A DNA stretch of 64,000 nt from Planctomycetes bacterium GWF2_41_51 (GTDB lineage: Bacteria > Planctomycetota > Phycisphaerae > Sedimentisphaerales > UBA12454). The stretch is from positions 1 to 64,000 of the forward strand of contig MHXZ01000005.1 of assembly GCA_001825665.1 (NCBI GenBank). The letters run 5' to 3'. The notes beneath the pieces are model-generated. The model made no database searches. It worked only from the letters and a program-made list of their open reading frames with translations, and was not told the origin of the DNA. Position 1 is the stretch's first letter, and each line of letters opens with the position of its first letter. The position numbers and the translations under genes are program-made. This document shows positions 31,151-54,723 of the stretch, piece by piece.

Positions 31151-31182
31151 AAAAGGTGAGAGCTTTCAGGTTTTCATCTTTT
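31151..31182. terminator. Possible bidirectional terminator between convergent operons
   Basis: AAAAGGTGA (31151-31159) pairs with TCATCTTTT (31174-31182), with one G-U pair, and is followed by T/A-rich sequence. It lies between the pseudopilin gene and the convergent gene ending at 31182. The stem is weak, so confidence is low. Confidence 0.35.
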
Positions 31183-32933
31183 TATTTAAAAATAATTTTT
31201 TCAATAACGAGTTTACCTGATTTTGCGGTGGTGCGCTGATTTGTGTAGTACCATGGTTTAGCCCAAAGTTTTATTACAAACTTATTGACCGCAAAAGATT
31301 TTGCGAGCATCCCATAAATTGAAGATTCGAAAATGATATACTTTTTCATTTCCGGTTTAATATCATCTATGAAGGTATATTGTGATTGTCCCTGGTCATC
31401 ATACAAATAAAGTCTCATACCTCCGAAATTTTCTTTACAACTGCCGCTGCATACTGCTTCGATACTGTTGAGATTTCTTATATCGATTTCCGGAAAGGAA
31501 ATCTCAATGTTAGCTTCGCTTTCCTTCTCGCTGCCAAAATCAAATTCTGCAATCAAACCTTCTTCCGCGAATTTCGCTTCAATCTTTCCGCCGCCCCAAA
31601 CATTAGTATTCAATTCAAGTTCATTCGGCTGTTTCATATCCATAACAAAATCCGATGATTTCTTTGGCGGCAATTGCTGCGGCTCTGAAGCATCTCGCCG
31701 GTTCCATTTTTCTATTAGGCTTGGATTCTCCGACAACCGGCTGCCTAAAATTTCAAAACCCGTTTTTACCATCGTATCTTTCGCAAAATATTTTCGCACC
31801 ATTCCGTCTTCAAGATAATTCGTCAAAGACAAAAACAGCATCGCCTGGTCGAGCGATAAATATCGGTCATCGACTTTGCCGGTTTTTAAATCAATTGAAT
31901 CGCGGAAGCCAAAATTTTTATTTTCGATTATAGGCGCCGTCATTCCCATCTCGTCGAGCCGATGTAAATTCTTGATTACATGCTGTGGATAATATTCTAT
32001 CACAAGAGCCGATGCGTGCGGCGTCACAACCCGCCACGGCAGATAACCACCTTCGGTGTAACCCTTTCCAGGTATATTGCAATTCGACCATCCCCAAACT
32101 TTTAAATCTCGGTCTTTTGCCTGCGTAATTTGATGCCATGCAAAGTCGCCGATAATACTGCCCATTTCTTCTCTGCTCGGCGGGTCTAAAAATATAGCAT
32201 CCATAGCCGACATAAACAGCCCGCCGAATCCATACCCCGGTTCGTAAAAAGTTAAACCTTCAACGCAGACCTTCACACGTTTCGCATCGTCCCAGATTTT
32301 CACAGGCTGCCCTCTTGCAATCATATAAAACATCACCAGCCTGCAATCCGACGCAAGCCAGAAATTGCCGAGACCGACAGGCGTATCATTTTTTATATCA
32401 TAACCCCAATAAGTTTTGCCGCTTTGTTTATCATAAAGTACGTTCCAGTTAACGCGTTCAATCAATGGCGAAGCCCAGTCCGCCAGTTCCGGAAAAAATT
32501 GTCGAACAAGTATCAATCCGGTGATAAGTTTATTGAAATCTGAAACTGCCATAACGCCTTCGCCCATTTTCGTATCGCCGCCGACGTCAATCCAGTTATA
32601 AATAAACCCGTTTCGAGATTCTATTTTCTTAACGGACTCGGTAATTTTTATTATACGTTCAAGCGCATCTGCTCGGGATATAAGCCCCATTTTCTCCGCA
32701 GGCCCTATAGCGGCAAGATATAAACCGATGTTCGTCGTATTGGTCGTGCCGCCGGTGTGCTGTGAATCGGTAGGAAAGCCTGTTTCTTTCGCGAGATGAT
32801 TATCAAGATAAGCCCACGTCTCTCTTAGAATCTGCCGCAAATACTTTTCGTCCTGACTTGAACATCGTGGATTGCCGAAAACATTTGAGCAGCCAATCAT
32901 AATCAATCCGCAAAAGAATAATTTGCTTTTCAT
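31182..32933 (-). CDS. Secreted (alpha/alpha)6 protein, GH144/DUF3131-like
   Basis: This 583-residue protein starts at ATG 32933, six bases after GGAGGA. The signal peptide contains a cysteine (LIMIGCSNVFG), possibly a lipoprotein site. The catalytic-like region (about 25-410) has TTNTTNIGLYLAAIGPAEKM, NGFIYNWIDV and SLDQAMLFLSLTNYLEDGMV, the pattern of the glucoamylase-like (PF10091/DUF3131) (alpha/alpha)6 group that includes GH144. A C-terminal beta-sandwich (about 440-583) probably binds carbohydrate. It is the third gene of the minus operon after GH35, so it likely acts on the same glycan. The exact reaction is not known; it is divergent from the three clear GH144-like proteins of this window. 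Confidence 0.6.
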   Translation of the reverse strand: MKSKLFFCGLIMIGCSNVFGNPRCSSQDEKYLRQILRETWAYLDNHLAKETGFPTDSQHTGGTTNTTNIGLYLAAIGPAEKMGLISRADALERIIKITESVKKIESRNGFIYNWIDVGGDTKMGEGVMAVSDFNKLITGLILVRQFFPELADWASPLIERVNWNVLYDKQSGKTYWGYDIKNDTPVGLGNFWLASDCRLVMFYMIARGQPVKIWDDAKRVKVCVEGLTFYEPGYGFGGLFMSAMDAIFLDPPSREEMGSIIGDFAWHQITQAKDRDLKVWGWSNCNIPGKGYTEGGYLPWRVVTPHASALVIEYYPQHVIKNLHRLDEMGMTAPIIENKNFGFRDSIDLKTGKVDDRYLSLDQAMLFLSLTNYLEDGMVRKYFAKDTMVKTGFEILGSRLSENPSLIEKWNRRDASEPQQLPPKKSSDFVMDMKQPNELELNTNVWGGGKIEAKFAEEGLIAEFDFGSEKESEANIEISFPEIDIRNLNSIEAVCSGSCKENFGGMRLYLYDDQGQSQYTFIDDIKPEMKKYIIFESSIYGMLAKSFAVNKFVIKLWAKPWYYTNQRTTAKSGKLVIEKIIFK

Positions 32934-32952
32934 TTGATAATCCTCCAAAAAA

Positions 32953-35142
32953 TCAAAGTCGCTCAAATGGCATTATCAACCCGCTAAATGGCGCCAAAGC
33001 GATTTTCTTACTATTAATAGAAATTTTCCCTTCAAGATGCTGATTATGATAATTCAACATAAAGAAATGTCCGCCGCCTTTTTTATTCAATCGTGTTCGT
33101 GTGATTATAAGCGGATTATCGCACGTAATCGGCCCTCTGAAATTTTCATTAAGACTTAAATTCTGCCATGCAAATTTATGCGCAGCCGCCTGATACATAA
33201 AGCCGCTCCCGAAGACAACCGCCGAACCTTTGCCGCAATTAACTTTTACACAGCAGGATTTTTTTTCTCGTGTTTGCGCAATCACTTTGCCGTTCTTTGC
33301 ATTGAAAGTTTCAATGTAACTAATTGCGTGAATTTCTTCTTTTGCCTCAATCCAGCTAATCATTCCATCGCTTTCAGTTTGCACCTGTTCGCTTTGAACA
33401 TTCAATCCATCCGCAAGCACGCTGCACCTTTTACCGTCGAGATTGAATTTCGGCAAAGTTGGGAAACAAATCAAATGTCTGCCTTGCCTCACATAATTAA
33501 GTAATCGCTGCTGACTGTCCGCATCCATTCTTTCCGTACATGCCGCCCAGATTTGTTTGTATTCCTCGAGTTGCGTCGTCTCTGTATTTGTAACATCGAC
33601 CGCGTCAAATTCCTGGTTATCCATCGCGAGCAGTTTCCCGAGACTTTCAAAAAGCAGTTCATCTGTAACAATCCGCTCATCGAGTCTGCATCCTCCGAGC
33701 GAGCAGTCATCGAGATTTTCCCCCGTAAAAAGCGGATTCGTAAATTCACGATAGTAATAAGGTGGATAAAACATCAGCGCCTGCGATGCCTTATTCTGAC
33801 ATTCGCAAATCTTTTGACCATGCGTTCTGAGGAACTCGCCGATATTTTTCGTCACAGTATAATGCTCCGAAGGCTCACCCCGCACATTTAAAGGCGTTTG
33901 AAGATAAAACGATGAATCGTAAATTCCCCAGCCGTCAGGATTCTGTCCCTGGCTGAACATATAAAAATTCATCGCCGTCGCGCCGTTCGCCAGGCATGCT
34001 TTATAGAACAATTCCATTTCATTCGGATAAACTCGCACATTCGCCTCGCGGGTTCCCGCCTGGAGTTCCGCGATATAAGTCGGACCGCGATTTCCCTGTA
34101 TTGCCTTCGTAAATGCGTTAATTAGCCTGTCATCGTGAAAATTTCGGTATGATGGATTTTCCGGAATATGATCAACCCCCAGCAGAATATCCGGATACAG
34201 CCGCGACAGCTTATGATACATCGACAAACAAACAGGCATGCTCTTTGCTCGCGAATAAACCCACCCCGGCACATTATGAAACAGCGGCACATCAACATTT
34301 CGCGCGCGGATTTCCTTTATCATCCTGCCGATATACTCCGCATAAAAATCTCTGTGAAAACTTTCCCAGTCCCGATACGCAAGATGATTTGCTTTAGTAA
34401 CAGCTTTTCCTGCCGGTGCTTTTACATCGTCGAAGTTCGAATAATTGCTTCCGTAATGATTATTAAGTTCGCTGATATTTTTATATCGCTGTTGGAGATA
34501 TTTTCGATATTCCTTTAGCGATGCCGGGCTGTAATCGCCGCTTCCTCCGAGCCATTGAAAAAGCCCGACCTCATTGCAAACCTGCACCATCGCAACAGGC
34601 CCGCCGTTTGAAAGCTGGTTCTTTGCGATAAGCGGCATAACCGCGTCATACCACTGCATTGCCTTCCTCGTATAATCCTGATGAACAAGGCAGGTGTATT
34701 TTACTAGATAAGGTTTGCCGTTGAAATCACACGCCATTGCCGCCGGATATTTTTCGAAAAACCATTTCGGTATCCCATGCATTGCAAGTTCCGCAAGGAT
34801 ATAAGGCCCCGGCTTCAAAATAAGATTCAGCCCTGTCTTGCTGCAAAGCTCTATAAATTTTTCAAGATTCAGATTTTCCGCGTACTTTCCGCCAAAATCC
34901 GGCTCACCTTCAACCTGCTCGTGCAGAGACCACGGCACATAAGTAGAAACTGTATTTAGACCTGCTTCTTTTATCATTCGAAGATGCTTAGACCATAGTT
35001 TTGCATCGATTCGGAAATAATGCATCTCTCCGCTGAGAATAAAATAACTTTCGCCATTTTGAACAAATGATTGATTGTTAAAAGATAAATTGCTTTTTTG
35101 TTTAAGCTTTAATTTTTTAATTTTTACTGCGGAAGGCACCAA
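32953..35142 (-). CDS. GH35 beta-galactosidase-like enzyme
   Basis: This 729-residue protein shows the GH35 signature near the N-terminus (ILSGEMHYFRI, GLNTVSTYVPWSLHE, LKPGPYILAELAM). The acid/base Glu191 is in VCNEVG and the nucleophile Glu359 in YIAELQAG. GH35 includes beta-galactosidases and some exo-beta-glucosaminidases and beta-1,3-galactosidases. The start is TTG 35142 or GTG 35139; GGAG lies inside the end of the upstream gene, two bases away, indicating translational coupling. There is no signal peptide. An N-terminal lysine-rich stretch (KIKKLKLKQKS) precedes the fold. Confidence 0.85.
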   Translation of the reverse strand: MVPSAVKIKKLKLKQKSNLSFNNQSFVQNGESYFILSGEMHYFRIDAKLWSKHLRMIKEAGLNTVSTYVPWSLHEQVEGEPDFGGKYAENLNLEKFIELCSKTGLNLILKPGPYILAELAMHGIPKWFFEKYPAAMACDFNGKPYLVKYTCLVHQDYTRKAMQWYDAVMPLIAKNQLSNGGPVAMVQVCNEVGLFQWLGGSGDYSPASLKEYRKYLQQRYKNISELNNHYGSNYSNFDDVKAPAGKAVTKANHLAYRDWESFHRDFYAEYIGRMIKEIRARNVDVPLFHNVPGWVYSRAKSMPVCLSMYHKLSRLYPDILLGVDHIPENPSYRNFHDDRLINAFTKAIQGNRGPTYIAELQAGTREANVRVYPNEMELFYKACLANGATAMNFYMFSQGQNPDGWGIYDSSFYLQTPLNVRGEPSEHYTVTKNIGEFLRTHGQKICECQNKASQALMFYPPYYYREFTNPLFTGENLDDCSLGGCRLDERIVTDELLFESLGKLLAMDNQEFDAVDVTNTETTQLEEYKQIWAACTERMDADSQQRLLNYVRQGRHLICFPTLPKFNLDGKRCSVLADGLNVQSEQVQTESDGMISWIEAKEEIHAISYIETFNAKNGKVIAQTREKKSCCVKVNCGKGSAVVFGSGFMYQAAAHKFAWQNLSLNENFRGPITCDNPLIITRTRLNKKGGGHFFMLNYHNQHLEGKISINSKKIALAPFSGLIMPFERL

Positions 35143-35144
35143 GT

Positions 35145-38060
35145 TTATATCTCCTTAAATTTAAATTCTGTTCCGGCCGGCACGATAAACCCGTTCGGCG
35201 GCAGTTTTGTGCAGCCTGCTTCGATAATTATTTTATTATTTTCGCGTTTGATGCTGTAGCTCAAAGAACCGTATAACGTCTGCAAATTTCTCACAGATAT
35301 TTTTTTATTAAGCCATTCATCTGGAATTCCGGCCGCAAGGACGAGCCTTCCGCGGTCTTCATAAACGAGCATATCCCGAATTGCGTTAATCAGCTCCGCG
35401 CCAACCCATGTATGCGGCATATCCCCAATATAACTCGGCGTGCGAAGGTCTCCGTGCACAACTTCTGCAAGATGATTCCATGCCGTCGGTCTTACTCCGT
35501 CATTCACGAAAAAATTCAAAAGCATTCTTGCGTCTTCGCTTCTTCCAAGCCGAATTAACGCGCCGATATTGCGAACTTCGTATGGTGTGTATGAGCTTCT
35601 TTTCTCCGAAGGCAATGCAGCTCTTTTTTTGCAATCCTGCATATACCTGTCGTACGTCGCTTTTAGCGCGGCGGCTGGCAGGTGGTCTCGTTCATCGGCA
35701 ATCATTATTCCAATCGATGTCGATGTCGGGTCGAAGTCCCCGAGTTCTGCGCAGGCAGGCAGGGTATCAAGATTGTCTCGCTTCTGAACTTTTGATATTG
35801 AGTCGAGCAGAGAACTGCGAAGTTCATTTTCAAAACAGGCGAGCCATTTAGCGTCATCTTTAAGCCCGAGTCTTAGTGCGATTATCTGAGCATCCTGCAA
35901 TCCTTTTAAAGCAAGAAAATCGTCCCAGTAACTATGCTTTGCAGGAAAATATCCTTCATGACTGTTCGACTGCGGCAAAATTCCCTCGTATTCCGTTCCT
36001 TTGTATTGCTCAGTCAAACGCTGATTGCGAAGGTTCTCCATATATTTCATTGCGGCTTTTAATCTCGGCCAACAGGTATTGGCGATATTGTTGTCGTCAG
36101 TTATTTCCGTAACTTCACGAACAAGAAACGCGTATTCTCCAAAAGAATCATATTCACCCCATGTTTCCGCAAATCCCACAGGCTTGCCCGTTTTTGTTTC
36201 CACGATAAACGGGACAAACCCGTCATCCTTAATTAACTGCGTAAACCATTGCAGATAATTTTTGCCGAAATCAATCATCCCGAACCGCATCATTGCAGTT
36301 GCGCTGATTGCCCCGTCGCGAATCCACGAATGATTGTAATTCCGTGAGCCGGGCTGTGTCGCAGGCCCATCTGCGTTAATCAAAAGATAAGCCAGATTCG
36401 AGCGAATGATATTGACCAGCTTCCTGTCGGGAATATTGATATCCCAGTCGCCTGTCAGCCGCTTCCAGTATTCAAGCGATTTGTTTATTTCGATTTTAAA
36501 AAATTCTTCATAATTGCCGCTGATTGAAATCATTGAACTATCTGAATTTGGATAAATTGCCAGAACTGTTTTTGTCTCACCTGCCGCAAAATGTAAATCA
36601 TATCTCACTCCTGCCGAAATTATTCCATCTGGCGAAGAAACGGAATTTCCATCGGTTGTTTTGTTTTCAAGGCACTCGACTATATCCATAGATTCGAAAT
36701 TCGGCTTTTGGCTGTAAAGCGAAACGAATGACGGTGTGGGATAAAAGCGTATCGCGGGTCTCTGATTGAGAATTAAAGTATTGTCGCTGTCTTGCCACGC
36801 TGCGTTATTGATTGAAGAATATCCGCCGAACTGCCAGGGCGGGTTTATTTGCAGCGGTCTTGCGGCAAGCAGAAAAGAAATATCGCACTCCTCTTTGCTT
36901 CTGTTTGTCATCGAGTAAAGCACAATTGTCGTATCAGGCTCGATTGTGTTTGCGGTGATTGCAATATTGATTTGATGGCTTTGTCCTTTCACTGTTGGAA
37001 TAGGTGCCCATCTCTGCAAAAGCGACTGTTCGAACATAAAACTTTTTGGGGATTCTATTTTGCCGTTGATTATGATTGCCGGTGTCGTGCTGAAATTTCT
37101 AAGTCCGGATTCTATCCTTCCATATTCATCTATAAGAGATTCATTAAAACTATCAGCAAGACCGGTAACAGTCCAGAAGTTTTGCTCACGCTTGAGCCAC
37201 CCCGGAAAAATCCCATCTGGCAGTCGTTGTGCGAGCATTTCAAAATGCCTGACTGGTGTCCACGCCTCGCTTGCTCCTTTAATTTGTATATCTGCTACAC
37301 AGGCAATTTCGTTATCGAAAACAAGCCGCAGCTTTTCTGTATCGATAGCGGGGAAAAATAAATCCTCGCTATTGTTAACTCCCGCCCTTTTATTCATTAT
37401 AGTCTGCCATTGATTATTGTCTGAAGCAGGAATTTCAATTTTGCAGGCAGGGGAGTGCTGCTGCGCCCAATTGATTTGAATTCCCCCGATTAACATTTTA
37501 TGTGGAAAGACAAGTTCAAGATATGAGTTTTCTTTGCTGCTCGGCTTCCAGTAAGTTTCCCTTTTGCCGTCGAGCACATTTTGGGGATAACTATTAAAAG
37601 CGGATGATGATGCGTTTGCCAGGATTTGATTTTCTTTCCCGAGAATTTCAATTTCCCAGATTGAGTATCCCCAGTCTGTTCCGCGTTTGTATCCGACAAA
37701 TTTGATGGCTTTGGTTTTTCTTAGGCCGAAATAAATTTCGTCAACACCGCCGTCGCCATATTGAATTTTGCTTGCCGTTTGCCAAACCCCGTCATCGCAG
37801 AGAGTTTGAATTTCATAATCTCTGCCGTAAGCGGTTTCCCAATGCAGCCGAACTCCGACCATTTCGACAGGGGAGTTGAAATCGACTTGCAGCCATTGAT
37901 TATCATTAAAATCGCTCGACCAGCGGGTATCCATTTTGCCATCTATTGCCATTGTCGAGGCAAGTTCATTTTGCTGAGAACTGGCTTTAATAGATTCTAT
38001 ACTACCTGAAAAACAGGTCGAAAAACATACCAAAATGATCGCTAAAATCGTTGTTTTCAT
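35145..38060 (-). CDS. Secreted protein with two F5/8C (CBM32-like) modules and an (alpha/alpha)6 catalytic-like domain
   Basis: This 971-residue protein starts at ATG 38060 after AAGGA; an upstream in-frame ATG at 38084 has no ribosome-binding site. The signal peptide ends at about residue 19 (CFSTCFSGS). Two discoidin-type modules follow (TMAIDGKMDTRWSSDFNDNQ; PQNVLDGKRETYWKPSSKEN). The region from about 540 to 880 is an (alpha/alpha)6 toroid with NYNHSWIRDGAISATAMMRF, HEGYFPAKHSYWDDFLALKG and PHTWVGAELINAIRDMLVYE. It resembles GH15/GH65-like hydrolases, but I cannot name the family. First gene of the minus operon with GH35, controlled by the promoter/operator at 38133-38161. Confidence 0.7.
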   Translation of the reverse strand: MKTTILAIILVCFSTCFSGSIESIKASSQQNELASTMAIDGKMDTRWSSDFNDNQWLQVDFNSPVEMVGVRLHWETAYGRDYEIQTLCDDGVWQTASKIQYGDGGVDEIYFGLRKTKAIKFVGYKRGTDWGYSIWEIEILGKENQILANASSSAFNSYPQNVLDGKRETYWKPSSKENSYLELVFPHKMLIGGIQINWAQQHSPACKIEIPASDNNQWQTIMNKRAGVNNSEDLFFPAIDTEKLRLVFDNEIACVADIQIKGASEAWTPVRHFEMLAQRLPDGIFPGWLKREQNFWTVTGLADSFNESLIDEYGRIESGLRNFSTTPAIIINGKIESPKSFMFEQSLLQRWAPIPTVKGQSHQINIAITANTIEPDTTIVLYSMTNRSKEECDISFLLAARPLQINPPWQFGGYSSINNAAWQDSDNTLILNQRPAIRFYPTPSFVSLYSQKPNFESMDIVECLENKTTDGNSVSSPDGIISAGVRYDLHFAAGETKTVLAIYPNSDSSMISISGNYEEFFKIEINKSLEYWKRLTGDWDINIPDRKLVNIIRSNLAYLLINADGPATQPGSRNYNHSWIRDGAISATAMMRFGMIDFGKNYLQWFTQLIKDDGFVPFIVETKTGKPVGFAETWGEYDSFGEYAFLVREVTEITDDNNIANTCWPRLKAAMKYMENLRNQRLTEQYKGTEYEGILPQSNSHEGYFPAKHSYWDDFLALKGLQDAQIIALRLGLKDDAKWLACFENELRSSLLDSISKVQKRDNLDTLPACAELGDFDPTSTSIGIMIADERDHLPAAALKATYDRYMQDCKKRAALPSEKRSSYTPYEVRNIGALIRLGRSEDARMLLNFFVNDGVRPTAWNHLAEVVHGDLRTPSYIGDMPHTWVGAELINAIRDMLVYEDRGRLVLAAGIPDEWLNKKISVRNLQTLYGSLSYSIKRENNKIIIEAGCTKLPPNGFIVPAGTEFKFKEI

Positions 38061-38132
38061 GGCAAAATCCTTCTTTTTTTTCACTTTTTTTGCATTTTTT
38101 TGAAATTCGTGAATAGTTGGAATTTATATTTT

Positions 38133-38161
38133 ATAAAAACGTTTTTACAAACAAAAGTCAA
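38133..38161 (-). promoter_or_regulatory. Promoter of the minus-strand GH35 operon
   Basis: On the minus strand TTGACT (38161-38156), a 17-base spacer and TTTTAT (38138-38133). A TATAAA slightly downstream is an alternative -10 box. The operator AAAAACGTTTTT overlaps the -10 region. Confidence 0.5.
38135..38146. promoter_or_regulatory. LacI-type operator AAAAACGTTTTT
   Basis: Perfect 12-base palindrome centred on CG, overlapping the minus-strand -10 box and 124 bases upstream of the divergent lacI-type gene. A 10-base version, AAAACGTTTT, occurs at the promoter 51043-51070. Confidence 0.6.
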
Positions 38162-38189
38162 GTAAAAAATGCTAAAAACAGGGTTTTTG

Positions 38190-38269: not shown

Positions 38270-39313
38270 ATGGAAGCAGAAACAACAAGTATAACAATTC
38301 ATAACGTCGCAAAGACTGCTGGCGTCTCGATTTCCACCGTTTCCCGTGTGGTAAATAATCTTGGCCGTGTTGCGCCTGAAACGCGAAAAAAAGTCGAAAA
38401 CGCAATCCGCCGCCTCGATTTTCATCCAAATAGTCGCGCGCAAGCCCTTAGCAGGAAAAGAAATGACACAATTGGCCTCATCGTCCCAGATTTCGAAGGC
38501 CAGTATTTCGCGATGTTAATGGAAGGCGCCCACGAAGAAGCCCAGGCAAACGGCATCAATATTATGGTTTTGAAAGCAAAAGGCGCCGAGTCGCAAATCG
38601 ATGTTGTTAAAAAGGTTAACTCTGAAGGCCGAACCGATGGCGTGATACTTATGCTTTCGGAACTATACGACCAGGTGCTCGAAGGCATTGGGAATATTAA
38701 TGGCCCGCTGGTAATTCTTGATAAAGATGTAAATCTCTGGCGGCTCGATAACATACTGGTTGACAATAGATTAGGTGCTTTTGAAGCTGCTCGCCATTTC
38801 ATAGATGTTCACGGAATTACAAACGTGTTTTTCGTCGGTGGTTCCGAACACAATGTCGATACAACAGCTCGCGCAAGAGGTTTCGCTGATGCGCTCGCAT
38901 CCATAAAAATAGATGCTAATGACAAAAAATTCTTTGGCAGCAATTACAGTTACGATGAGGGTTATCGGCTTGCCTTCGAAAAGATATCTCCTCTTATTAA
39001 GCCCAATGAGCGATATGGTATCGTTTCCGGTAATGACGATATTGCGTGCGGTATCATTGATGCTCTTATGGATAAAGGAGTTAAGGTTCCGCAACAAGTT
39101 GGTGTAATAGGTTTCGACGATTCTGATATCGCGATTCATCGCAGATTAAAACTAACGACAATGCGCATACCAACAAAAGAAATTGGCCGAATCGCTGTAA
39201 GAATGATTCTGAATAGGCAATCTGGGCAGGTTTCTGAACCATCGAAAGTTGTATTAAAAGCTCGGCTTATAGTTCGTGATTCGTGCGGCTGCGGAAAACA
39301 CGATAGTCAGTAA
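38270..39313 (+). CDS. LacI family transcriptional regulator 3
   Basis: This 347-residue regulator has the helix-turn-helix at residues 7-28 (TIHNVAKTAGVSISTVSRVV) and a complete sugar-sensor domain (TIGLIVPDFEGQYFAMLMEG, DGVILMLSE, GVIGFDDSDIA). The recognition helix differs from regulators 1 and 2 (SIST instead of SKST), matching the different palindrome found at 38135-38146 and 51036-51045. The C-terminus has two close cysteines (DSCGCGK). It heads the plus-strand beta-1,2-glucan operon and diverges from the GH35 operon, so it probably controls both plus the 51-kb unit. Confidence 0.9.
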   Translation: MEAETTSITIHNVAKTAGVSISTVSRVVNNLGRVAPETRKKVENAIRRLDFHPNSRAQALSRKRNDTIGLIVPDFEGQYFAMLMEGAHEEAQANGINIMVLKAKGAESQIDVVKKVNSEGRTDGVILMLSELYDQVLEGIGNINGPLVILDKDVNLWRLDNILVDNRLGAFEAARHFIDVHGITNVFFVGGSEHNVDTTARARGFADALASIKIDANDKKFFGSNYSYDEGYRLAFEKISPLIKPNERYGIVSGNDDIACGIIDALMDKGVKVPQQVGVIGFDDSDIAIHRRLKLTTMRIPTKEIGRIAVRMILNRQSGQVSEPSKVVLKARLIVRDSCGCGKHDSQ

Positions 39314-39328
39314 ATTTTTGGAGAGAAG

Positions 39329-40630
39329 GTGAATAAAAAACATTACATATTCTTTGTAAATGTTCTGCTTGCCTGTAGTTGCTTTGCGGCGTTCACCGCC
39401 GATAATGAACGGTTGCTTGAAGAAATCAGCGAAGCGTCTTTTCAATTTTTCTGGAAAGAAGCAAATCCTGATTCAGGTTTGATTCGTGACAGAACAGGAA
39501 AAGAGGTTTGCAGTGTTGCTTCTCTGGGATTTGGGTTGGCTGCGCTTCCAATTGGTGTGAAAAGAGGATATGTTTCATTTGAACAAGCTAAGACACGAGC
39601 CTTAAATGCTTTACGAACTTTGGAAAAATCAAATGCTCAATATAAAGGCATTTACTGTCATTTTATTGATTTCAATGACGGCAATACAACAAACCTGGGT
39701 TATGAACGAGTAACCTCAACGATTGATACCGCCTTAATGATTGCCGGCTCGATAGTTGCGGCCGAATATTTCGGCGGCGAAGTAAAACAGGCCGCGGAAC
39801 AAATTTTTGCGCAAGCCAATTGGTCCGCTTATGTAAATCCTGTAAACGGTCAGGTTTACATGGCTTATGATATTGATAAAAACCAGTTCGAAAAACAAAC
39901 CTGGGACTGGTACACCGATGAAACTCTTTTAATTGTTTTGCTCGGCCAGTCCGCACCGAATGCCCAATATCGTCTTGCTCCTGAAACGATGACAAACTGG
40001 AATCGGCCTATTGGAAAATATAAAGACGGTCAGCCGTTTATTTATTCGCATCCCGGCACATTATTTACTTATATGTTTGCTCATTGTTTCTATGATTTTC
40101 AGAAAACCGGCGTTGACTCGCTTGACGTTGATTGGTTTGAAAATACTCGCAGAGCGGTTTTGGCAAACCGTGATTGGTGTCGTGACAATTGCTCTGAATA
40201 TAAAAGTTATGGCCAAAATCTTTGGGGAATTACCGCCGGCAGCGGACCAGACGACAAATATGTTGTGCTTGGTCATCCGCCGCGCGGAGCAAATGACAAC
40301 CAGGGACAATACGGTACGCTGCATCCTTATGGTGCTGGTATGTCGCTTCCTTTTGCACAGAGCGATGCAATTTCAGCTCTTCGCGAAATGCGCAAGTTAA
40401 AAATCGAAGGCAAAACCGTTTGGCAATCAGTTGATGATGGCGGTTATGGTTTTTGGGATGGTTTTGATATTGATAAGCATTGGGTTTCGGATCAGGTAAT
40501 CGGAATTGCACAGGGACCTATGCTTTTATTGATAGAAAATGCTCGTACAGGTCTTGTTTGGAAACTGATGATGAAAAATCACTATGTCAAACAGGGACTT
40601 GCAAGAGCAGGCTTTAAGGGAAAATTCTGA
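39329..40630 (+). CDS. GH144-like endo-beta-1,2-glucanase, short form
   Basis: This 433-residue secreted protein starts at GTG 39329 after GGAGAG. A signal peptide (NVLLACSCFA) precedes a glucoamylase-like (PF10091) (alpha/alpha)6 domain: EASFQFFWKEANPDSGLIRD, SVASLGFGLAALPIGVKRGY, SHPGTLFTYMFAHCFYDFQK, SYGQNLWGITAGSGP and the closing IAQGPMLLLIENARTGLVWK. GH144 enzymes with this domain cut linear beta-1,2-glucan into sophoro-oligosaccharides, and the next gene is a phosphorylase of the size known for those oligosaccharides. No extra module is present; the cysteine in the signal region (LACS) suggests a lipoprotein. Family members with other substrates exist, so the substrate is inferred from context. 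Confidence 0.75.
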   Translation: MNKKHYIFFVNVLLACSCFAAFTADNERLLEEISEASFQFFWKEANPDSGLIRDRTGKEVCSVASLGFGLAALPIGVKRGYVSFEQAKTRALNALRTLEKSNAQYKGIYCHFIDFNDGNTTNLGYERVTSTIDTALMIAGSIVAAEYFGGEVKQAAEQIFAQANWSAYVNPVNGQVYMAYDIDKNQFEKQTWDWYTDETLLIVLLGQSAPNAQYRLAPETMTNWNRPIGKYKDGQPFIYSHPGTLFTYMFAHCFYDFQKTGVDSLDVDWFENTRRAVLANRDWCRDNCSEYKSYGQNLWGITAGSGPDDKYVVLGHPPRGANDNQGQYGTLHPYGAGMSLPFAQSDAISALREMRKLKIEGKTVWQSVDDGGYGFWDGFDIDKHWVSDQVIGIAQGPMLLLIENARTGLVWKLMMKNHYVKQGLARAGFKGKF

Positions 40631-40642
40631 TACAGGTATTCT

Positions 40643-43984: not shown

Positions 43985-43993
43985 AGTGAAAAA

Positions 43994-45439
43994 ATGACTC
44001 GAATGGATCATCATATTACGGAAAGTAAAGACAAGATTCCTGTCAAACAGAAGGTTGCATACGGATTGGGCTGGATGTCAACCAATGTTGCGGTGAATTC
44101 TTTCAGTAATATGACACTGCTGATTTATAATTCAGGGTTGGGATTAAATCCTATACTCCTTGGTGTTGCGCAATTTGTTCCGCGATTATGGGATGCGTTT
44201 ACAGATCCTATGATTGGCAACTTATCTGACAATACACGTTCGAAATTCGGAAGAAGAATACCATATATATTCTTTGGCGCATTTCTTCTCGGCCTTGCTT
44301 TTACGCTTCTATGGATGGCTCCCAAAGGCTGGAGTGAGTATGTTACATTCGGTTACATTATGGTCGTTTCGTTATTTTTCTTTACAGCAGCGACAATATA
44401 CGATGTGCCGCGCGGTGCGCTTGGTTTTGAAATGACAGACGATTATCACGAAAGAACACGATTATTTGCTTATGGCAGCTTCTTCATAAATGTCGGCGCT
44501 CTAACCACTCCATGGCTTTATTTTGCCGCAACTCGGAAAGTATTCAAAGATGAAGTGGAAGGAATGAAATACGTTGGCTACTTTATGGGAGGTCTGATGC
44601 TGTTCGGAGGTCTTGTTTGCTCGTTTATATGCAAGGAAAGAAAGACACAGCAAGTCAAACATCAGGCAAGAGTCAAATTCTGGGACAGTATCAGCATGAC
44701 TTCAAAAAATCGTACGTTTATCTGGCTGCTTGCCATAGTACTTCCGGTAACAATTGGTTTTTATTTTGTTAATGGGTTTAGCCAATACATAATGTTGTAT
44801 TATGTTTATGGAGGCGATAAAGCAAACGCATCTGTTCTTATGGGATGGGCAGGAACATTATGGGCAGGGCTTTCTCTGCCGGGCGTTTTTGTTATGACTT
44901 ATATAGCAACGCGTATCGGTAAATCTAAAACTGTAATGCTGTTTTTAATAATTATGGCTTTGGGCAATTCTCTTAAAATAGTATGTTACAGCAAAGTGCA
45001 TCCGTGGCTTGTTTTGATTCCGACAGCTTCATTGTCCCTGGGAATGCTCGTATTGTTTTCACTTGTTTATGCAATGCTTGCAGATATCTGCGATGAAGAT
45101 GAATTGAAAACAGGCAAACGCAGGGAAGGCAGTTATCAGGCGGTTTACGGATGGTGGTGGAAAATAGGAATAGCAGGAGGCCTTCTTATTTCCGGCATTC
45201 TTCTGAAAGCTACGGGTTTTGATGCAAAATTTGCGATTCAGTCCGAGTCAACGCTGTTTTGGCTTCGGTTCTGGGAAATCGGTTTGCCGTCGGTTATGTG
45301 CTTAATAAGCGTTTTGTTATTGATCAAATACCCGCTTACAGAACAGCGTGCTTATGAAATTAAGGATTTACTTGAAAAACGAAAACGTGCTTCATTGGAA
45401 GCTCTTACGGTTGAGCAGGAAAATGTACAGAAAACATAG
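43994..45439 (+). CDS. GPH family sugar:cation symporter 2
   Basis: This 481-residue membrane protein with about twelve helices carries the GPH signatures LWDAFTDPMIGNLSDNTRSK plus FGRRIPYIFFG and MLADICDEDELKTGKRREGS. It is clearly related to symporter 1 at 21548-23011 over its whole length. Position between the GH94 gene and the AraC-type gene makes it the probable importer of beta-1,2-oligoglucans. The stop codon overlaps the next gene's GTG start by one base. Confidence 0.9.
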   Translation: MTRMDHHITESKDKIPVKQKVAYGLGWMSTNVAVNSFSNMTLLIYNSGLGLNPILLGVAQFVPRLWDAFTDPMIGNLSDNTRSKFGRRIPYIFFGAFLLGLAFTLLWMAPKGWSEYVTFGYIMVVSLFFFTAATIYDVPRGALGFEMTDDYHERTRLFAYGSFFINVGALTTPWLYFAATRKVFKDEVEGMKYVGYFMGGLMLFGGLVCSFICKERKTQQVKHQARVKFWDSISMTSKNRTFIWLLAIVLPVTIGFYFVNGFSQYIMLYYVYGGDKANASVLMGWAGTLWAGLSLPGVFVMTYIATRIGKSKTVMLFLIIMALGNSLKIVCYSKVHPWLVLIPTASLSLGMLVLFSLVYAMLADICDEDELKTGKRREGSYQAVYGWWWKIGIAGGLLISGILLKATGFDAKFAIQSESTLFWLRFWEIGLPSVMCLISVLLLIKYPLTEQRAYEIKDLLEKRKRASLEALTVEQENVQKT

Positions 45440-45813
45440 TGTATGATTTGCCGAAAATCTTTATGGATTCAGACAATAACCATATAACGGATATCGTGGT
45501 TGCCAGGGCGCTGGAGTATATCCGGAGCAATGTTCGAAAACCGATACAAGTCAGCGAAATAGCGGAGTTTGTTTCGGTTTCGCGAAGAGAGCTTGAACGG
45601 AGATTTAAAAAAACTTTGCAAAGCTCGATTCATCAGGAAATTAAAATTGCCAGAGTGCATCTGATAAAAAGGATGCTGCTCGAAACGCCTGACAGTGTTT
45701 CCGAAATAGCAGTTAAACTGGGTTTTTTGGAAAATCATATTGCCAGATATTTCAGAGACGTCGAAGGAATAAGTCCTGTCGAGTACAGGAGAAAGAATTT
45801 ATGTGCTGTATGA
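45439..45813 (+). CDS. Minimal AraC-type DNA-binding protein (XylR-like tail without sensor)
   Basis: This 124-residue protein consists almost only of the double helix-turn-helix AraC domain (about residues 20-120): RKPIQVSEIAEFVSVSRREL, ERRFKKTL, VSEIAVKLGFLENHIARYFR, GISPVEYRRKN. Planctomycete XylR-type regulators end with exactly this kind of domain, preceded by a LacI-like sugar sensor of about 270 residues that is absent here. The start is GTG 45439, overlapping the symporter stop; ATG 45463 is possible. Its end overlaps the next gene. Without a sensor it may act as a constitutive DNA binder, pair with another protein, or be a functional remnant. The direct repeats at 50964-50995 are candidate sites. 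Confidence 0.8.
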   Translation: MYDLPKIFMDSDNNHITDIVVARALEYIRSNVRKPIQVSEIAEFVSVSRRELERRFKKTLQSSIHQEIKIARVHLIKRMLLETPDSVSEIAVKLGFLENHIARYFRDVEGISPVEYRRKNLCAV

Positions 45814-48413: not shown

Positions 48414-48416
48414 TTT

Positions 48417-49274
48417 ATGAAATGCAGAAAAATAATTCCGGGTTTTACATTAGTTGAATTGCTGGTTGTTGTTTCAATTATCGCGATACTGCTTGCAATT
48501 CTGATTCCATCGATGCGCCGGGCTAAAGAACAGGCAAATTGCGTTGTATGTAAAAGCAATCTTCGTAATTACAGCCTTGCAGGAGCTATGTATCTTGAAG
48601 CAAACAATAATAAGTTTCCGCATCCCAAAACTTGTGTCGACGGCCGAGCAACATTTGAACCTGATTATCTGAATGCGCATCAAAAAGAATGCCGCTGGCA
48701 TGATGCCGGTGTTGAACCGCAGGGACCTTACTGGCCCTATCTTAAGGCTAAAGGAGTACACGTCTGTCCAACTTTCGCAAATATTACTAAAAACAAAAGA
48801 TCGCTCCACGAGGATTATCTAAATAGTATAGGAGCAAATGTAAACTTCTGTCGGACTCTCTCTATGCAGCCGCGGCTTTCTTACAGTATGAATGGTTATC
48901 TCGGATCAGGTATTCCCAATGACCCAATAGAAAATGAACTCAATAATAAAGAACAAATGCCTAAAGTTACTAATGTAAAACGACCTTATGCAACTCTCTT
49001 TCTTACTGAGGAGAATATATGGACCATAACAAGATTAAAAGACGGGATTCAGGTTAGCAGCCATGCATGGAACGATATGTATTTTATAGCCCAAAAATAT
49101 GGCAATGGTGACAGTATCGCAACATTCCATAAAGCTTCCGATTCAAAACTCAATAAAGGCATCAGTAATGTTTTGTTTGTCGATGGTCATATAGATGAAA
49201 GAAAAGCATTCGACAATATTGACCTTGCAAATCGTTCATCTGGGAAAAGTTATAATTTGATTATAGGTAAATGA
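48417..49274 (+). CDS. Pseudopilin-like protein 2
   Basis: This 285-residue protein begins [20 protein letters not shown], a prepilin-type N-terminus cleaved before Phe, followed by [20 protein letters not shown], a conserved Cys pair (CVVCKSN) and a late NVLFVDGHIDERK segment of the H-x-DG family. Related to the pseudopilin at 30306-31133 in plan and in the first 50 residues. It follows the GH144-PA14-dockerin gene by three bases and overlaps the next gene by four, so it is strictly co-expressed with the glucanase set. Confidence 0.85.
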   Translation: MKCRKIIPGFTLVELLVVVSIIAILLAILIPSMRRAKEQANCVVCKSNLRNYSLAGAMYLEANNNKFPHPKTCVDGRATFEPDYLNAHQKECRWHDAGVEPQGPYWPYLKAKGVHVCPTFANITKNKRSLHEDYLNSIGANVNFCRTLSMQPRLSYSMNGYLGSGIPNDPIENELNNKEQMPKVTNVKRPYATLFLTEENIWTITRLKDGIQVSSHAWNDMYFIAQKYGNGDSIATFHKASDSKLNKGISNVLFVDGHIDERKAFDNIDLANRSSGKSYNLIIGK

Positions 49275-50944: not shown

Positions 50945-50963
50945 TCAGATATAAGTATTTAGT

Positions 50964-50995: not shown

Positions 50996-51035
50996 GTTCT
51001 TTCAAACATTAAGGTAAGTTAAAATCAAATTGTGA

Positions 51036-51070: not shown

Positions 51071-51133
51071 CTGTCATAAGGTTGATAGGTTTATAAGTAA
51101 AAAAATAGAAATTTAGGATTAGGAGGAAAAGAA

Positions 51134-51781
51134 ATGACGAAATTAATGTATGTAAGTTTATGTGTGTGTTTGGGCGTAGTTCTGTGCGGAATTGCCCAAG
51201 CGAATCTTCTGCAAAACGGAGACTTTGAACAAGGCGATGTGGCTTGGCTTGGCGACCATCCGTCTATTCCGGGTTGGACATATTGGGGTACTGATGGCTG
51301 GCACATGAGCGATGCAGGATATGTAAAGGATGCAAAAGGCATGCTTGTTTGGTGGGACTCTGTTGGTATGTACCAGGATGTTTTTGATGTGATCGTCGGA
51401 CAGGAGTACGAATTCAGTGTGGAAGCTATCACTAAATCAGCAGATAAACTCAAAGGCTGGGATTTGGTTATGAGGGCTGAATGGACTGCTGAAAATTGGG
51501 CCACGATATCTTCAACTGACATCGGCCGTTTCGTAGGTGCTAAAAGTGAATCCGACCCCGGTGATGGAACTGATACATGGAAATTAATTTCTGGTACAAG
51601 CATAGCTCCAGAAGGTGCTGCTCACGGTAAAATTTATTTTCAACTCGTTCAGGCTGGAGACTGGGGCTACACAGGCGGTTCGGTTTGTTTCGATAACGCA
51701 AGCGTAGTTCTTGTTCCTGAACCGATGACAATGGCGTTACTCGGAATCGGCGGATTGCTCTTTGTTAGAAGAAGGAAATAA
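51134..51781 (+). CDS. PEP-CTERM surface protein with CBM-like domain
   Basis: This 215-residue protein starts after AGGAGG. Signal peptide (to GIAQA), then a beta-sandwich domain (NLLQNGDFEQGDVAWLGDHP, IPGWTYWGTDGWHMSDAGYV, LVWWDSVGMYQDV, VCFDNASVVLV) and a C-terminal PEP-CTERM signal (PEPMTMALLGIGGLLFVRRR). The next gene encodes the same domain with a dockerin instead of the PEP-CTERM tail. The CBM-like fold and regulation with GH144 genes suggest glucan binding at the surface. Confidence 0.85.
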   Translation: MTKLMYVSLCVCLGVVLCGIAQANLLQNGDFEQGDVAWLGDHPSIPGWTYWGTDGWHMSDAGYVKDAKGMLVWWDSVGMYQDVFDVIVGQEYEFSVEAITKSADKLKGWDLVMRAEWTAENWATISSTDIGRFVGAKSESDPGDGTDTWKLISGTSIAPEGAAHGKIYFQLVQAGDWGYTGGSVCFDNASVVLVPEPMTMALLGIGGLLFVRRRK

Positions 51782-51802
51782 TTCTTGAAAGGAAGGATAA
51801 TT

Positions 51803-52534
51803 ATGAAAATAAGAATTTTAATTATGTTATTAGTCCTGTGTGCCTCCGGCAATTTAATTGCCGAAAACCTTTTAGTTAATCCCGGTTTTGAGCAGGGGAA
51901 CGTCAGTTGGTTTGGAGAATCGGGTTTTTCAATCCCCGGCTGGACTTTCTGGGGTACTGATGGCTGGTGCCACAATAATGCAGGTGCATTCTTCGATAAC
52001 AGGGCTATTTTGACCTGGTCGGATTCCGTTGGTGTTGCTGTATATCAGGATATTCCTGTTGTGGCAGGTAACGAATATAGATTCAGTGCATATATGTATT
52101 CACCTTCCAATGATGCTAACGGTCTTCACGGAAGAGATGCCTATTTTTCTGTTGAATGGTATGACAGCAATCCCCCGGTTTATGAAGGTAAGATTTATGC
52201 TGATGATGTAGGAATTTTTTATGGAGCTCTCACCGATTCAAATCCGATAGATCCATACAATACATGGAAAAATGTCTCTGCTGTACTTGAAGCTCCAACT
52301 CCGGCCGTTGTCGCAAGAGTCTATCTGCATCAGGAGATTAATGCGGGTTCCGAAAATGGCACTGGTGGAGTGGTTAGCTGGGATAATATATTTGCCGGAA
52401 CAGGCCCGGCCTGCGGCACGTCTTACTTAGCCGGAGACGTAAACAAAGATTGCTATGTCAATTTTACTGATTTTGCTCTAATGGCCGAAAACTGGCTCAA
52501 ATGCAACGATGTCTTTAATACGAATTGCCAATAA
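51803..52534 (+). CDS. Dockerin-bearing sister of the preceding CBM-like protein
   Basis: This 243-residue protein starts at ATG 51803 after GGAAGG (the in-frame TTG at 51785 lies before that site). Signal peptide, then the same domain as the preceding gene: NLLVNPGFEQGNVSWFGESG, IPGWTFWGTDGWCHNNAGAF, DSVGVAVYQDI, VVSWDNIF. From about residue 207 a dockerin pair replaces the PEP-CTERM tail (AGDVNKDCYVNFTDFALMAE). It is a clear tandem duplicate whose C-terminal localisation tag differs. Confidence 0.8.
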   Translation: MKIRILIMLLVLCASGNLIAENLLVNPGFEQGNVSWFGESGFSIPGWTFWGTDGWCHNNAGAFFDNRAILTWSDSVGVAVYQDIPVVAGNEYRFSAYMYSPSNDANGLHGRDAYFSVEWYDSNPPVYEGKIYADDVGIFYGALTDSNPIDPYNTWKNVSAVLEAPTPAVVARVYLHQEINAGSENGTGGVVSWDNIFAGTGPACGTSYLAGDVNKDCYVNFTDFALMAENWLKCNDVFNTNCQ

Positions 52535-52550
52535 TTAATTGAATTGATTA

Positions 52551-52584
52551 AAGGGCGCTTGCTTTTTAAGCGCCCTTATTTTTC
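52551..52584 (+). terminator. Strong rho-independent terminator directly before the next start codon
   Basis: AAGGGCGCTT (52551-52560) pairs perfectly with AAGCGCCCTT (52568-52577), 7-base loop, followed by ATTTTTC. The next gene's ATG is at 52588, three bases after the T run. Confidence 0.85.
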
Positions 52585-52587
52585 AAA

Positions 52588-54723
52588 ATGCGAACCTTAA
52601 TTTACATATTGATTATTCTGAGTTTTCTTGTCTCGCCGATTTTCGCGCAATCCCTCATCACTGGTCTTTATGCCGAAGGTCACGATTGCAGAATAGATTT
52701 GGTTTGGCAGCCTGTTTCTGACCCGGGTCTCGATGGATATTATATTTACAGAAGCAGATACGAAAATGGCAATTACATAAAAATAAATACGGATGAACAT
52801 ACTGTTTCAGTATATAGTAATTTTATAGGTGATAATGTAAGACCTTATTGGTATTACGTCAGACCTAAGATAAACGGGGTTGAAGGCGAAGCATCTGCCA
52901 AAGTTACCGCCACACCTTATACGATGACAGATGACGAACTTTTGACTTCTATTCAAAAAGCCACCTTTAGATATTTTTGGGATTTCGCGCATCCCGATTG
53001 CGGAATGGCTCGCGAAAGATTCGCAACCTACGACCGCCACAAGGTAACAACCGGCGGAACTGGTATGGGATTGATGACAATTGTCGTTGGTGCTGAACGA
53101 GGTTTTGTTACAAGAGCGCAGGCCGCCCAAAGAGTTCTTCAGATTATAACTTTTCTTCAGGACACCGCGCCAAGATATCATGGTGCATGGCCGCATTGGA
53201 TGAATGGAACGACCGGTGCGATTATTCCTGCTGATTATGTCAATGGCGTTCCAGTTATCGCTTCCGACATTATAGAAACTGCCGATATGATTCAGGGAAT
53301 GCTTGTTTGCCGACAATATTTTGACTCTGACGATTCCGTTGAAACTGAAATTCGCAGCCGTGCGACGCAGCTTTATGAGGACGTGGATTGGGAATGGTAT
53401 CGCAGAGCTAATGAAACCGACGGCAAGCGTCTATGGTGGTCATGGTCGCCTGACCCTAATTTCGGTTGGAATGAAAGTTTTTCATTTGGCGGCGGCGAAA
53501 CAATGAATGTCTATCTTCTTGCGATTGCTTCACCCACGCACCCAATACCCGCAAGCTGCTATTATGATGGTTTCGGCTTCGAAGGTGGCTACAAAAACGG
53601 AAATAGATATTATGGCTATACCCAGTGGGTCAGCTATTTTGAGACGCCAATGTTCTGGACTCATTATTCTTTTCTCGGTTTTGATCCTCGTAATAAATGG
53701 GACAACTACTGCAATTATTTCGAGAACAGCAGGAACATTGCTTTAATAGATAGGGCGTATTGTATGGCCAAGGGTTATCCCGGCTACGGCCCTGATACTT
53801 GGGGTCTGACTTCCAGTAATAATCCATGGGGTTACGGCGCTCACTCGCCGGGAAAGGCAGCTTGGGCCGAGGACAACAATACGGTTGCTCCAACCGCTGC
53901 GATTAGTTCGATGCCGTACACTCCGACCGAATCAATTTCTGCGATGAAAAATTTTTATTATAATTATGGCCATTTCTTGTGGGGTCCATTAGGTTTTTAC
54001 GACGCCTTTAATTTCGACGTCCCATTCGATCCGGACTGGAGCGATTATCTGGCGATTGACCAGGGCACAATCGTTCCTATGATAGAAAACTATCGAACCG
54101 GCCTGTGCTGGAATCTGTTTATGTCAAATCCAGAGATTAAACCTATGCTCGAAAGTATCGGCTGGGCGACAAGAGCTGATAACGGTTTAAATTACGAATA
54201 TTATGAAGGCGTATGGAATGCTCTTCCTGATTTTGATTCGCTAACTCCTGTTGCACAGGGCAAAGCGAATAATTTTGATATCGGCTTGCGCCAGAGAGAT
54301 GATTATTTTGCTTTTCGGTTCAAAGGCTACATTGATGTACCAAGAGCCAGCATTTATACTTTTTACATTTCTTCTGATAACGGAAGCCAATTGTTTATTG
54401 ATGATGTAATGGTAGTAAACAATGATGGTTTGCATGATCTCTTGAAAAAAAGCGGAAATAGAAATCTCACCAAGGGAAGACATTCAATTACTGTTACTTA
54501 TTTTGATAATGATAGTGATCAGGATTTGATCGTTAGTTATTCAGGAGGCGGAATTACGGAAAAGCAAATCCAGGTAAACAATTTATTCAGATGTCCTGAA
54601 AATCTGCCCGGTGATTTCAGCGGAGATTGCCTTGTTAATATAGATGATTTAAAGATAATTGCCGATAATTGGCTCAATGGTTATACGTTTATTGATTTCG
54701 CTGAAATGGCGGAACATTTTTAA
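52588..54723 (+). CDS. Secreted GH144-like enzyme with PA14 and shortened dockerin
   Basis: This 711-residue protein has a signal peptide (to IFAQS), a fibronectin-like module (about 22-110), a PF10091/GH144-like domain from 113 (MTDDELLTSIQKATFRYFWD, TGGTGMGLMTIVVGAERGFV, WTHYSFLGFDPRNKWDNYCN, LAIDQGTIVPMIENYRTGLC), a PA14-like module about 545-670 and a dockerin at 674-711. Compared with the protein at 45801 it lacks the N-terminal sandwich module and its dockerin stops at FAEMAEHF where the other continues KNWLEYR, so the second calcium helix is shortened. No ribosome-binding site precedes the ATG; the terminator does. It may be read through or regulated by that hairpin. Confidence 0.8.
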   Translation: MRTLIYILIILSFLVSPIFAQSLITGLYAEGHDCRIDLVWQPVSDPGLDGYYIYRSRYENGNYIKINTDEHTVSVYSNFIGDNVRPYWYYVRPKINGVEGEASAKVTATPYTMTDDELLTSIQKATFRYFWDFAHPDCGMARERFATYDRHKVTTGGTGMGLMTIVVGAERGFVTRAQAAQRVLQIITFLQDTAPRYHGAWPHWMNGTTGAIIPADYVNGVPVIASDIIETADMIQGMLVCRQYFDSDDSVETEIRSRATQLYEDVDWEWYRRANETDGKRLWWSWSPDPNFGWNESFSFGGGETMNVYLLAIASPTHPIPASCYYDGFGFEGGYKNGNRYYGYTQWVSYFETPMFWTHYSFLGFDPRNKWDNYCNYFENSRNIALIDRAYCMAKGYPGYGPDTWGLTSSNNPWGYGAHSPGKAAWAEDNNTVAPTAAISSMPYTPTESISAMKNFYYNYGHFLWGPLGFYDAFNFDVPFDPDWSDYLAIDQGTIVPMIENYRTGLCWNLFMSNPEIKPMLESIGWATRADNGLNYEYYEGVWNALPDFDSLTPVAQGKANNFDIGLRQRDDYFAFRFKGYIDVPRASIYTFYISSDNGSQLFIDDVMVVNNDGLHDLLKKSGNRNLTKGRHSITVTYFDNDSDQDLIVSYSGGGITEKQIQVNNLFRCPENLPGDFSGDCLVNIDDLKIIADNWLNGYTFIDFAEMAEHF

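What the first reader, a model, noticed from the sequence alone, without database searches (positions are those of the whole stretch)
31182..54723. A three-unit regulon that looks dedicated to beta-1,2-glucan, with dockerin and PEP-CTERM parts
Seen: three GH144/PF10091-like genes (39329, 45801, 52588), a 1113-residue GH94 with GGDWND, a GPH symporter, LacI and AraC regulators, dockerins and a PEP-CTERM protein under similar promoters. Known: GH144 enzymes make sophoro-oligosaccharides and long GH94 proteins phosphorolyse them. Inference: a planctomycete beta-1,2-glucan system combining surface-tethered enzymes with phosphorolysis. The GH35 and two orphan (alpha/alpha)6 proteins may handle substituted or mixed chains.
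Basis: partly seen in the sequence, partly recalled or inferred. Interest (0 to 1): 0.75.

Follow-up and report, generated by a model that had tools for sequence, protein, structure and literature searches.

The report
Planctomycete beta-1,2-glucan utilization locus
This stretch of a planctomycete genome is a co-regulated set of genes for eating an uncommon bacterial sugar polymer (beta-1,2-glucan), and it carries three unstudied protein types that gene order and gene fusions tie to the same polymer.

Summary
Three genes are GH144 beta-1,2-glucanases that keep the catalytic and clan residues. The 1113-residue protein is a 1,2-beta-oligoglucan phosphorylase (12 of 12 mapped LpSOGP ligand residues kept). 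All four PF10091 genes of this 4.8 Mb genome lie in this cluster. A LacI-type palindrome sits in the divergent promoter and before gene 51134; it recurs at the divergent position in six related clusters and is missing from the one cluster without LacI. Three proteins have no assigned role. P0006, a secreted (alpha/alpha)6 protein in no Pfam glycosidase family, lies within 13 kb of a PF10091 gene in 22 of 26 genomes (0.45 expected) and is fused to one elsewhere. P0009, a second (alpha/alpha)6 protein, is fused to P0006-type domains elsewhere. P0005 is a beta-1,2-glucanase-clan relative with Asp where the clan has its catalytic Glu, and without the GH189 nucleophile. The dockerin reading is weak: no cohesin was found. 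Everything is inferred from sequence and predicted structure; no activity was tested.

The parts
31182..32966 (-). P0005: secreted, divergent beta-1,2-glucanase-clan protein, closest to GH189 but without its nucleophile; Asp207 in place of the clan catalytic Glu
   Evidence: PF10091 40 bits; CGS 8rf9 68.8 bits, 8wy1 63.7 bits; residue tables; tree
32953..35142 (-). P0007: GH35 of the IaSGT (beta-1,2-glucosyltransferase) type, no signal peptide seen
   Evidence: 7vkw 541 bits; 13 of 13 residues identical
35145..38084 (-). P0006: secreted protein with two F5/8C domains and an (alpha/alpha)6 glycosidase-like barrel, family unassigned
   Evidence: AF2 pLDDT 92.6; folds; linkage
38131..38150 (.). 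LacI-type operator palindrome TTATAAAAACGTTTTTACAA in the divergent promoter region
   Evidence: conserved in six related clusters
38270..39313 (+). LacI-family regulator, first gene of the second unit
   Evidence: PF00356, PF13377; syntenic orthologues 65-77% identical
39329..40630 (+). P0001: secreted (possibly lipoprotein) GH144, XcSGL-like
   Evidence: 8xul 174 bits; residues
40643..43984 (+). [quoted passage not shown]
   Evidence: SOGP_N, SOGP_2nd, SOGP_4th; 5h3z 646 bits; 12 of 12 residues
43994..45439 (+). GPH-family sugar:cation symporter
   Evidence: PF13347 254.5 bits; syntenic orthologues
45439..45813 (+). AraC-type DNA-binding domain alone, 124 aa
   Evidence: HTH_18 64 bits
45801..48413 (+). 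P0002: secreted GH144 with PA14 and a dockerin-like tail below Pfam threshold
   Evidence: 5z06 442 bits; residues
48417..49274 (+). P0008: pseudopilin-like protein with N-terminal methylation motif
   Evidence: PF07963 24.6 bits
49271..50944 (+). P0009: secreted protein with an (alpha/alpha)6 domain, family unassigned
   Evidence: model and folds; fusions with P0006-type domains in L132 and L155
51030..51049 (.). second operator palindrome TTGTGAAAACGTTTTGACAA before the third unit
51134..51781 (+). P0010: PEP-CTERM protein, first gene of the third unit
   Evidence: PF07589, TIGR02595
51785..52534 (+). P0011: secreted CBM4_9-like protein with a sub-threshold dockerin-like tail
52588..54723 (+). 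P0003: secreted GH144 with PA14 and a dockerin-like tail below Pfam threshold
   Evidence: 4gl3 375 bits; residues

Best explanation
A co-regulated locus of a Phycisphaerae planctomycete for taking up and using beta-1,2-glucan made by other organisms. Secreted GH144 enzymes (P0001, P0002, P0003) cut the polymer to beta-1,2-glucooligosaccharides; P0006, P0009 and P0005 probably deal with ends, branches or other forms of the same polymer outside the cytosol. A GPH symporter imports oligosaccharides. In the cytosol the SOGP phosphorolyses those of three or more units to glucose 1-phosphate and shorter oligomers, ending at sophorose, and the IaSGT-type GH35 passes glucose from sophorose to other glucosides. 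LacI binds a palindrome in the divergent promoter and before 51134 and represses until an oligosaccharide binds it. Shown by sequence: family, residues, gene order, operator conservation. Inferred: substrate in vivo, direction of flow, the role of LacI and of the three unassigned proteins.
For: GH144 identity and residues (residues from PMC12102758). SOGP domains and 12 of 12 residues (residues from PMC5309861). IaSGT residues 13 of 13, including Arg349 and Leu100, which are not conserved in many homologues (PMC8861115). All four PF10091 genes of the genome are here, so there is no cyclic glucan synthase of that kind, and no OpgG: no sign that the host makes this glucan itself. Synteny: in G105, G190, G214, G280, L114 and L115 an IaSGT gene is divergent from LacI-GH144-SOGP-GPH; L114 and L115 also carry P0005 in the same unit. 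IaSGT orthologues of 57% or more are in 7 of 298 class genomes, 6 of them with SOGP. Operator ATAAAAACGTTTTTAC or a close form at the divergent position in G105, G190, G214 and G280, a 15/16 match in L114 and L115, none in G140, which lacks LacI there.
Against: No beta-glucosidase lies in the three units, so the final use of sophorose is unexplained (the same gap is noted for Ignavibacterium in PMC8861115). No outer-membrane receptor was found in the cluster. No enzyme here has been assayed. SOGP is rare in the class (14 of 298 genomes), so the locus is patchy. The 14-base operator pattern is not enriched genome-wide (4 hits against 18 for its control); only its place and its conservation speak for it.
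Confidence: 0.9

Rival explanations
1. The locus mainly serves osmoregulated periplasmic, branched or alpha-1,6-cyclized beta-1,2-glucans of other bacteria, and P0006 and P0009 are the debranching or ring-opening enzymes that make them accessible. This is a narrower version of the best explanation.
For: P0006 homologues sit beside opgG and an opgH-like glycosyltransferase in two Nitrospirales loci. Beta-1,2-glucans in nature are mainly cyclic (PMC12102758), and OPGs and alpha-1,6-cyclized forms exist (PMC11842490). The P0006 barrel resembles GH15 isomaltose glucohydrolase, Z 31.7, rmsd 3.1 over 322 residues.
Against: The fold is shared with GH65, GH94, GH78 and GH116 and does not fix linkage or anomer. 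There is no substrate evidence.
Confidence: 0.35
2. The system is for another glucan, such as laminarin or a mixed-linkage chain, and the beta-1,2 families are side activities or misassigned.
For: The neighbouring unit at 24226-27153 has a GH16, a family with many beta-1,3-glucanases.
Against: GH144, SOGP and IaSGT residues are all kept. [quoted passage not shown] The GH16 lies outside the regulon and lacks the operator.
Confidence: 0.04
3. P0006, P0009 and P0005 are bystanders, or non-catalytic binding proteins, of the locus, not further enzymes of the pathway.
For: P0005 has lost the clan Glu. P0009 occurs in few genomes (7 of 298). In about half of the long loci from other phyla P0006 has no beta-1,2-glucan gene near it (21 of 43 have one).
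Against: P0006 is near a PF10091 gene in 22 of 26 class genomes; fusions P0006-PF10091, P0006-P0009 and GH144-P0005; ten invariant acidic residues in P0006.
Confidence: 0.2

Closest known systems
Ignavibacterium album IALB_1185 (IaSGT) gene cluster (PMC8861115)
   Same: GH144 enzymes with an IaSGT-type GH35 and no beta-glucosidase in the cluster; GH35 without signal peptide
   Different: There: TonB-dependent and ABC transport and a protein like the C-terminal SOGP domain of cyclic glucan synthase. Here: stand-alone SOGP, GPH symporter, LacI/AraC control, PEP-CTERM, plus P0005, P0006 and P0009
Listeria innocua lin1839 (SOGP) cluster, as described in PMC12369401
   Same: SOGP as the intracellular phosphorolytic step
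   Different: Listeria has an ABC binding protein for the oligosaccharides and a GH3 beta-glucosidase, and no IaSGT is described there; here a GPH symporter and IaSGT and no beta-glucosidase in the units
GH144 XcSGL, CpSGL and BDI_3064
   Same: Catalytic domain, general-acid Glu, base position, clan Phe and Tyr
   Different: P0002 and P0003 add PA14 domains and a dockerin-like tail; endo or exo action not known
GH189 transglycosylase domain of cyclic glucan synthases
   Same: Closest solved relatives of P0005 and sister group in the tree
   Different: P0005 is a stand-alone secreted protein, lacks the WGxSE Glu and has Asp for the clan Glu

Membership tests
GH144 (P0001, P0002, P0003) | PF10091 catalytic domain above the curated cut-off, nearest solved relatives GH144 | tested here: met
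   GH192 (8xuj) and GH194 (8xuk) were not among their listed hits at E 0.01
GH144 (P0001, P0002, P0003) | General-acid Glu, acidic residue at CpSGL E142, clan Phe and Tyr | tested here: met
   All three keep all four; the Tyr of P0001 depends on the alignment
GH144 (P0001, P0002, P0003) | Hydrolysis of beta-1,2-glucan with inversion | not testable with these tools
   Needs assay
GH94 1,2-beta-oligoglucan phosphorylase (P0004) | SOGP-type N-terminal and other SOGP domains with the GH94 catalytic domain | tested here: met
   PF21958, PF21250, PF21270 and PF17167 over their cut-offs
GH94 1,2-beta-oligoglucan phosphorylase (P0004) | LpSOGP residues at subsites -1, +1, +2 and the phosphate site | tested here: met
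   12 of 12 mapped residues identical; Y1004 and S1005 only seen in the match line
GH35 beta-1,2-glucosyltransferase, IaSGT type (P0007) | IaSGT catalytic and sophorose-binding residues | tested here: met
   13 of 13 identical: E191 and E359 catalytic, N190, R365, L116 and others
GH35 beta-1,2-glucosyltransferase, IaSGT type (P0007) | Transglucosylation from sophorose without hydrolysis | not testable with these tools
   Needs assay
[quoted passage not shown]
   Asp207 in P0005; Asp in six of seven relatives, Gly in L166
[quoted passage not shown]
   Phe251, Tyr303 (alignment-dependent), Asp143
GH189 (P0005) | Glu nucleophile, in the WGxSE motif of cyclic glucan synthases | tested here: not met
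   WGWSN in P0005 and no Glu in any relative. That this Glu is the nucleophile is from memory of TiCGS
GH192, GH193, GH194 (P0005) | Grouping with reference members | tested here: inconclusive
   8xuj (GH192) only 32.5 bits; no reference sequences of these families were in the tree
Known GH families (P0006) | Barrel match over the cut-off to a Pfam glycosidase family | tested here: not met
   Bac_rhamnosid6H 22 bits against 24.5; best barrel match in the PDB by profile is MmpH, E 0.016. CAZy itself was not available
Known GH families (P0009) | Match to a Pfam or PDB family by sequence | tested here: inconclusive
   No Pfam match, best PDB profile match E 0.7; fold is an (alpha/alpha)6 barrel of moderate confidence
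Cellulosome-type dockerin proteins | Dockerin domain over the cut-off and a cohesin partner in the genome | tested here: not met
   Best tail 19.2 bits against 22.9; no cohesin in a 95.6% complete genome

The most novel reading that the evidence does not exclude
P0006 and P0009 found two new glycoside hydrolase families that act on beta-1,2-glucan or its branched, cyclic or periplasmic forms, and P0005 represents a new group of the beta-1,2-glucanase clan with an Asp general acid. Together they would add three enzyme steps to a pathway in which few are known.
Probability: 0.5. Interest if true: 0.68.

Novelty: new variant of a known kind. Interest (0 to 1): 0.55.

Why it matters
Few enzymes for beta-1,2-glucans are known and their environmental consumers are poorly mapped; the paper search found no description of such a locus in Phycisphaerae. 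The locus joins the phosphorolytic route (SOGP) with the GH35 transferase in one regulated block, which makes the unexplained role of IaSGT testable. It also points to three protein types, one of them (P0006) with more than 500 relatives across many phyla, that are unstudied as far as these tools show.

Tried and rejected
1) Another GH94 specificity for the phosphorylase: rejected on residues and bit scores. 2) Worry that P0001 lacks the clan Tyr: a pairwise alignment put His there, the multiple alignment places a Tyr; this stays alignment-dependent. 3) The third genome-wide operator site (C15:16349) lies inside the start of a SurA/PpiC-like gene, so probably chance. 4) Sigma-70 promoter scan: not above shuffles. 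5) Cellulosome idea: no cohesin. 6) The P0009 model is of low confidence overall (pLDDT 65.9); only its barrel part (about 188-557) was used. 7) P0006 homologues of xanthomonads (L173, L175, L185) showed no clear beta-1,2-glucan genes nearby. 8) GH192-194 could not be placed for lack of reference sequences. 9) NCBIfam gave no specific name for the GH144, SOGP or P0005 proteins. 10) A tree and alignment first failed on a bad row and were rerun.
Full report
Observation. The region 31182-54723 holds 14 genes. The AraC regulator is a 124-residue DNA-binding domain at 45439-45813 that overlaps both neighbours. A fourth, weaker PF10091 gene lies at 31182 (P0005). A search of the whole genome (4.83 Mb, 95.6% complete) found these four PF10091 genes and no others, no OpgG and no cohesin, but two exosortases.

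Enzymes with a known counterpart. P0001, P0002 and P0003 match GH144 structures (174, 442 and 375 bits) and keep the residues that define the beta-1,2-glucanase clan and the candidate base position (residues from PMC12102758). Whether they act endo or exo is open: P0002 and P0003 also align with the N-terminal part of 5z06 (BDI_3064), and an exo-acting, sophorose-releasing enzyme is known within GH144 (PMC12369401, PMC11842490; that BDI_3064 is this enzyme is my recollection). P0004 carries the SOGP-specific Pfam domains, matches LpSOGP at 646 bits against 47 for the next GH94, and keeps 12 of 12 mapped ligand residues (PMC5309861). The GH35, P0007, matches IaSGT at 541 bits against 232 for the nearest glucosaminidase, and 13 of 13 substrate and catalytic residues are identical, including Arg349 and Leu100, which the authors report as not conserved in many homologues (PMC8861115).

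Conserved block. In G105, G190, G214 and G280 of the same order, and in the named records L114 (Planctomycetota) and L115 (labelled Omnitrophota), an IaSGT gene is divergent from LacI-GH144-SOGP-GPH. A close P0006 orthologue (54-71%) lies before IaSGT in G105, G140, G214, L114 and L115; G190 has only a divergent relative (28%) next to IaSGT, and G280 has none. P0005 orthologues (66%) complete the same unit in L114 and L115. Among 298 genomes of the class, IaSGT orthologues of 57% or more occur in 7, of which 6 also have SOGP, and all six SOGP genomes of this order have IaSGT.

Operator. The window has a 20-base near-palindrome at 38131 and another at 51030; their core AAAACGTTTT occurs nowhere else in the 64 kb. 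ATAAAAACGTTTTTAC or a close form lies at the divergent position in G105, G190, G214 (two) and G280, and a 15/16 match in L114 (one) and L115 (two). In G140, where LacI is missing from that position, there is none. Genome-wide the 14-base pattern is not enriched, and the third site lies in a coding start. I conclude a LacI-controlled regulon of three units: 38084 down to 31182, 38270 to 50944, and 51134 to 54723. That this LacI is the binder is inferred.

P0006. Its AF2 model is confident (pLDDT 92.6): two F5/8C domains, a beta-sandwich and an (alpha/alpha)6 barrel. The nearest folds are of GH15, GH65, GH94, GH78 and GH116 types at Z about 25-32 with 10-16% identity, so the fold does not give the specificity. 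Ten acidic residues are invariant in 59 homologues; Glu644 and Glu874 are my candidates for acid and base (inference). In 22 of 26 class genomes with a full homologue the gene lies within 13 kb of a PF10091 gene, with 0.45 expected for random placement (the estimate treats genomes as independent and ignores other causes of clustering). In L122 it is fused to a PF10091 domain. In two Nitrospirales loci it lies beside opgG, an opgH-like gene and a GH1 gene. Against this, 22 of 43 long loci from a broad scan show no beta-1,2-glucan gene of the window's types.

P0009 and P0005. P0009 has an (alpha/alpha)6 domain, nearest MmpH and GH15 (Z 27-30), from a model that is poor in its N-terminal third. 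Relatives are fused to P0006-type domains in L132 and L155, and in L155 an SOGP gene follows. P0005 sits in a clade beside GH189 (support 97/96, long branches). It has Asp at the catalytic Glu position, as do six of its seven relatives, and none has the GH189-type Glu. In L128, L133 and L166 a P0005-type domain follows a GH144-type domain in one protein. P0005 may be a differently acting hydrolase, a transferase or a binding protein; I cannot tell.

Model and limits. Secreted GH144 enzymes and the unassigned proteins break the polymer; the symporter imports oligosaccharides; SOGP yields glucose 1-phosphate and finally sophorose; IaSGT moves glucose from sophorose to other glucosides. The fate of sophorose is the main gap, as in Ignavibacterium (PMC8861115). 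All of this rests on sequence and predicted structure; no assay exists for any protein of this locus as far as I could find.

Noticed in passing
window 6967-9546 (-): One GH3+PA14 gene is split into two ORFs, with the GH3 C-terminal domain divided between them: probable frameshift, pseudogene or assembly error.
   Followed up: no
window 5014-21547: A second carbohydrate cluster: GH106 with a weak dockerin-like tail, GH2, LacI, and two large proteins (15170-18346, 19402-21315) with no Pfam match; palindrome TAGCAAGCGTTTGCTA at 21369.
   Followed up: no
window 23513-31133: PEP-CTERM protein, GH16 with Ig-like domains, LacI, a 434-aa protein with no Pfam match and a pseudopilin-like protein: possibly a separate glucan unit.
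   Followed up: no
window 45439-45813; L049 12814-13971: The AraC regulator is reduced to its DNA-binding domain here and is short in G105 and G280 (139-142 aa), while G190 keeps a full XylR-like 385-aa form: the sensor domain has been lost, perhaps more than once.
   Followed up: partly
L167 and L176 (Nitrospirales): P0006-type genes, a GH1 gene and a sugar-binding protein gene next to opgG and an opgH-like gene, which suggests turnover of periplasmic glucan.
   Followed up: partly
L128 6671-9700, L133 3351-6449, L166 4201-6756: Tandem fusion of a GH144-type domain and a P0005-type domain in one protein, in records labelled Lentisphaerae, Verrucomicrobia and uncultured bacterium.
   Followed up: partly
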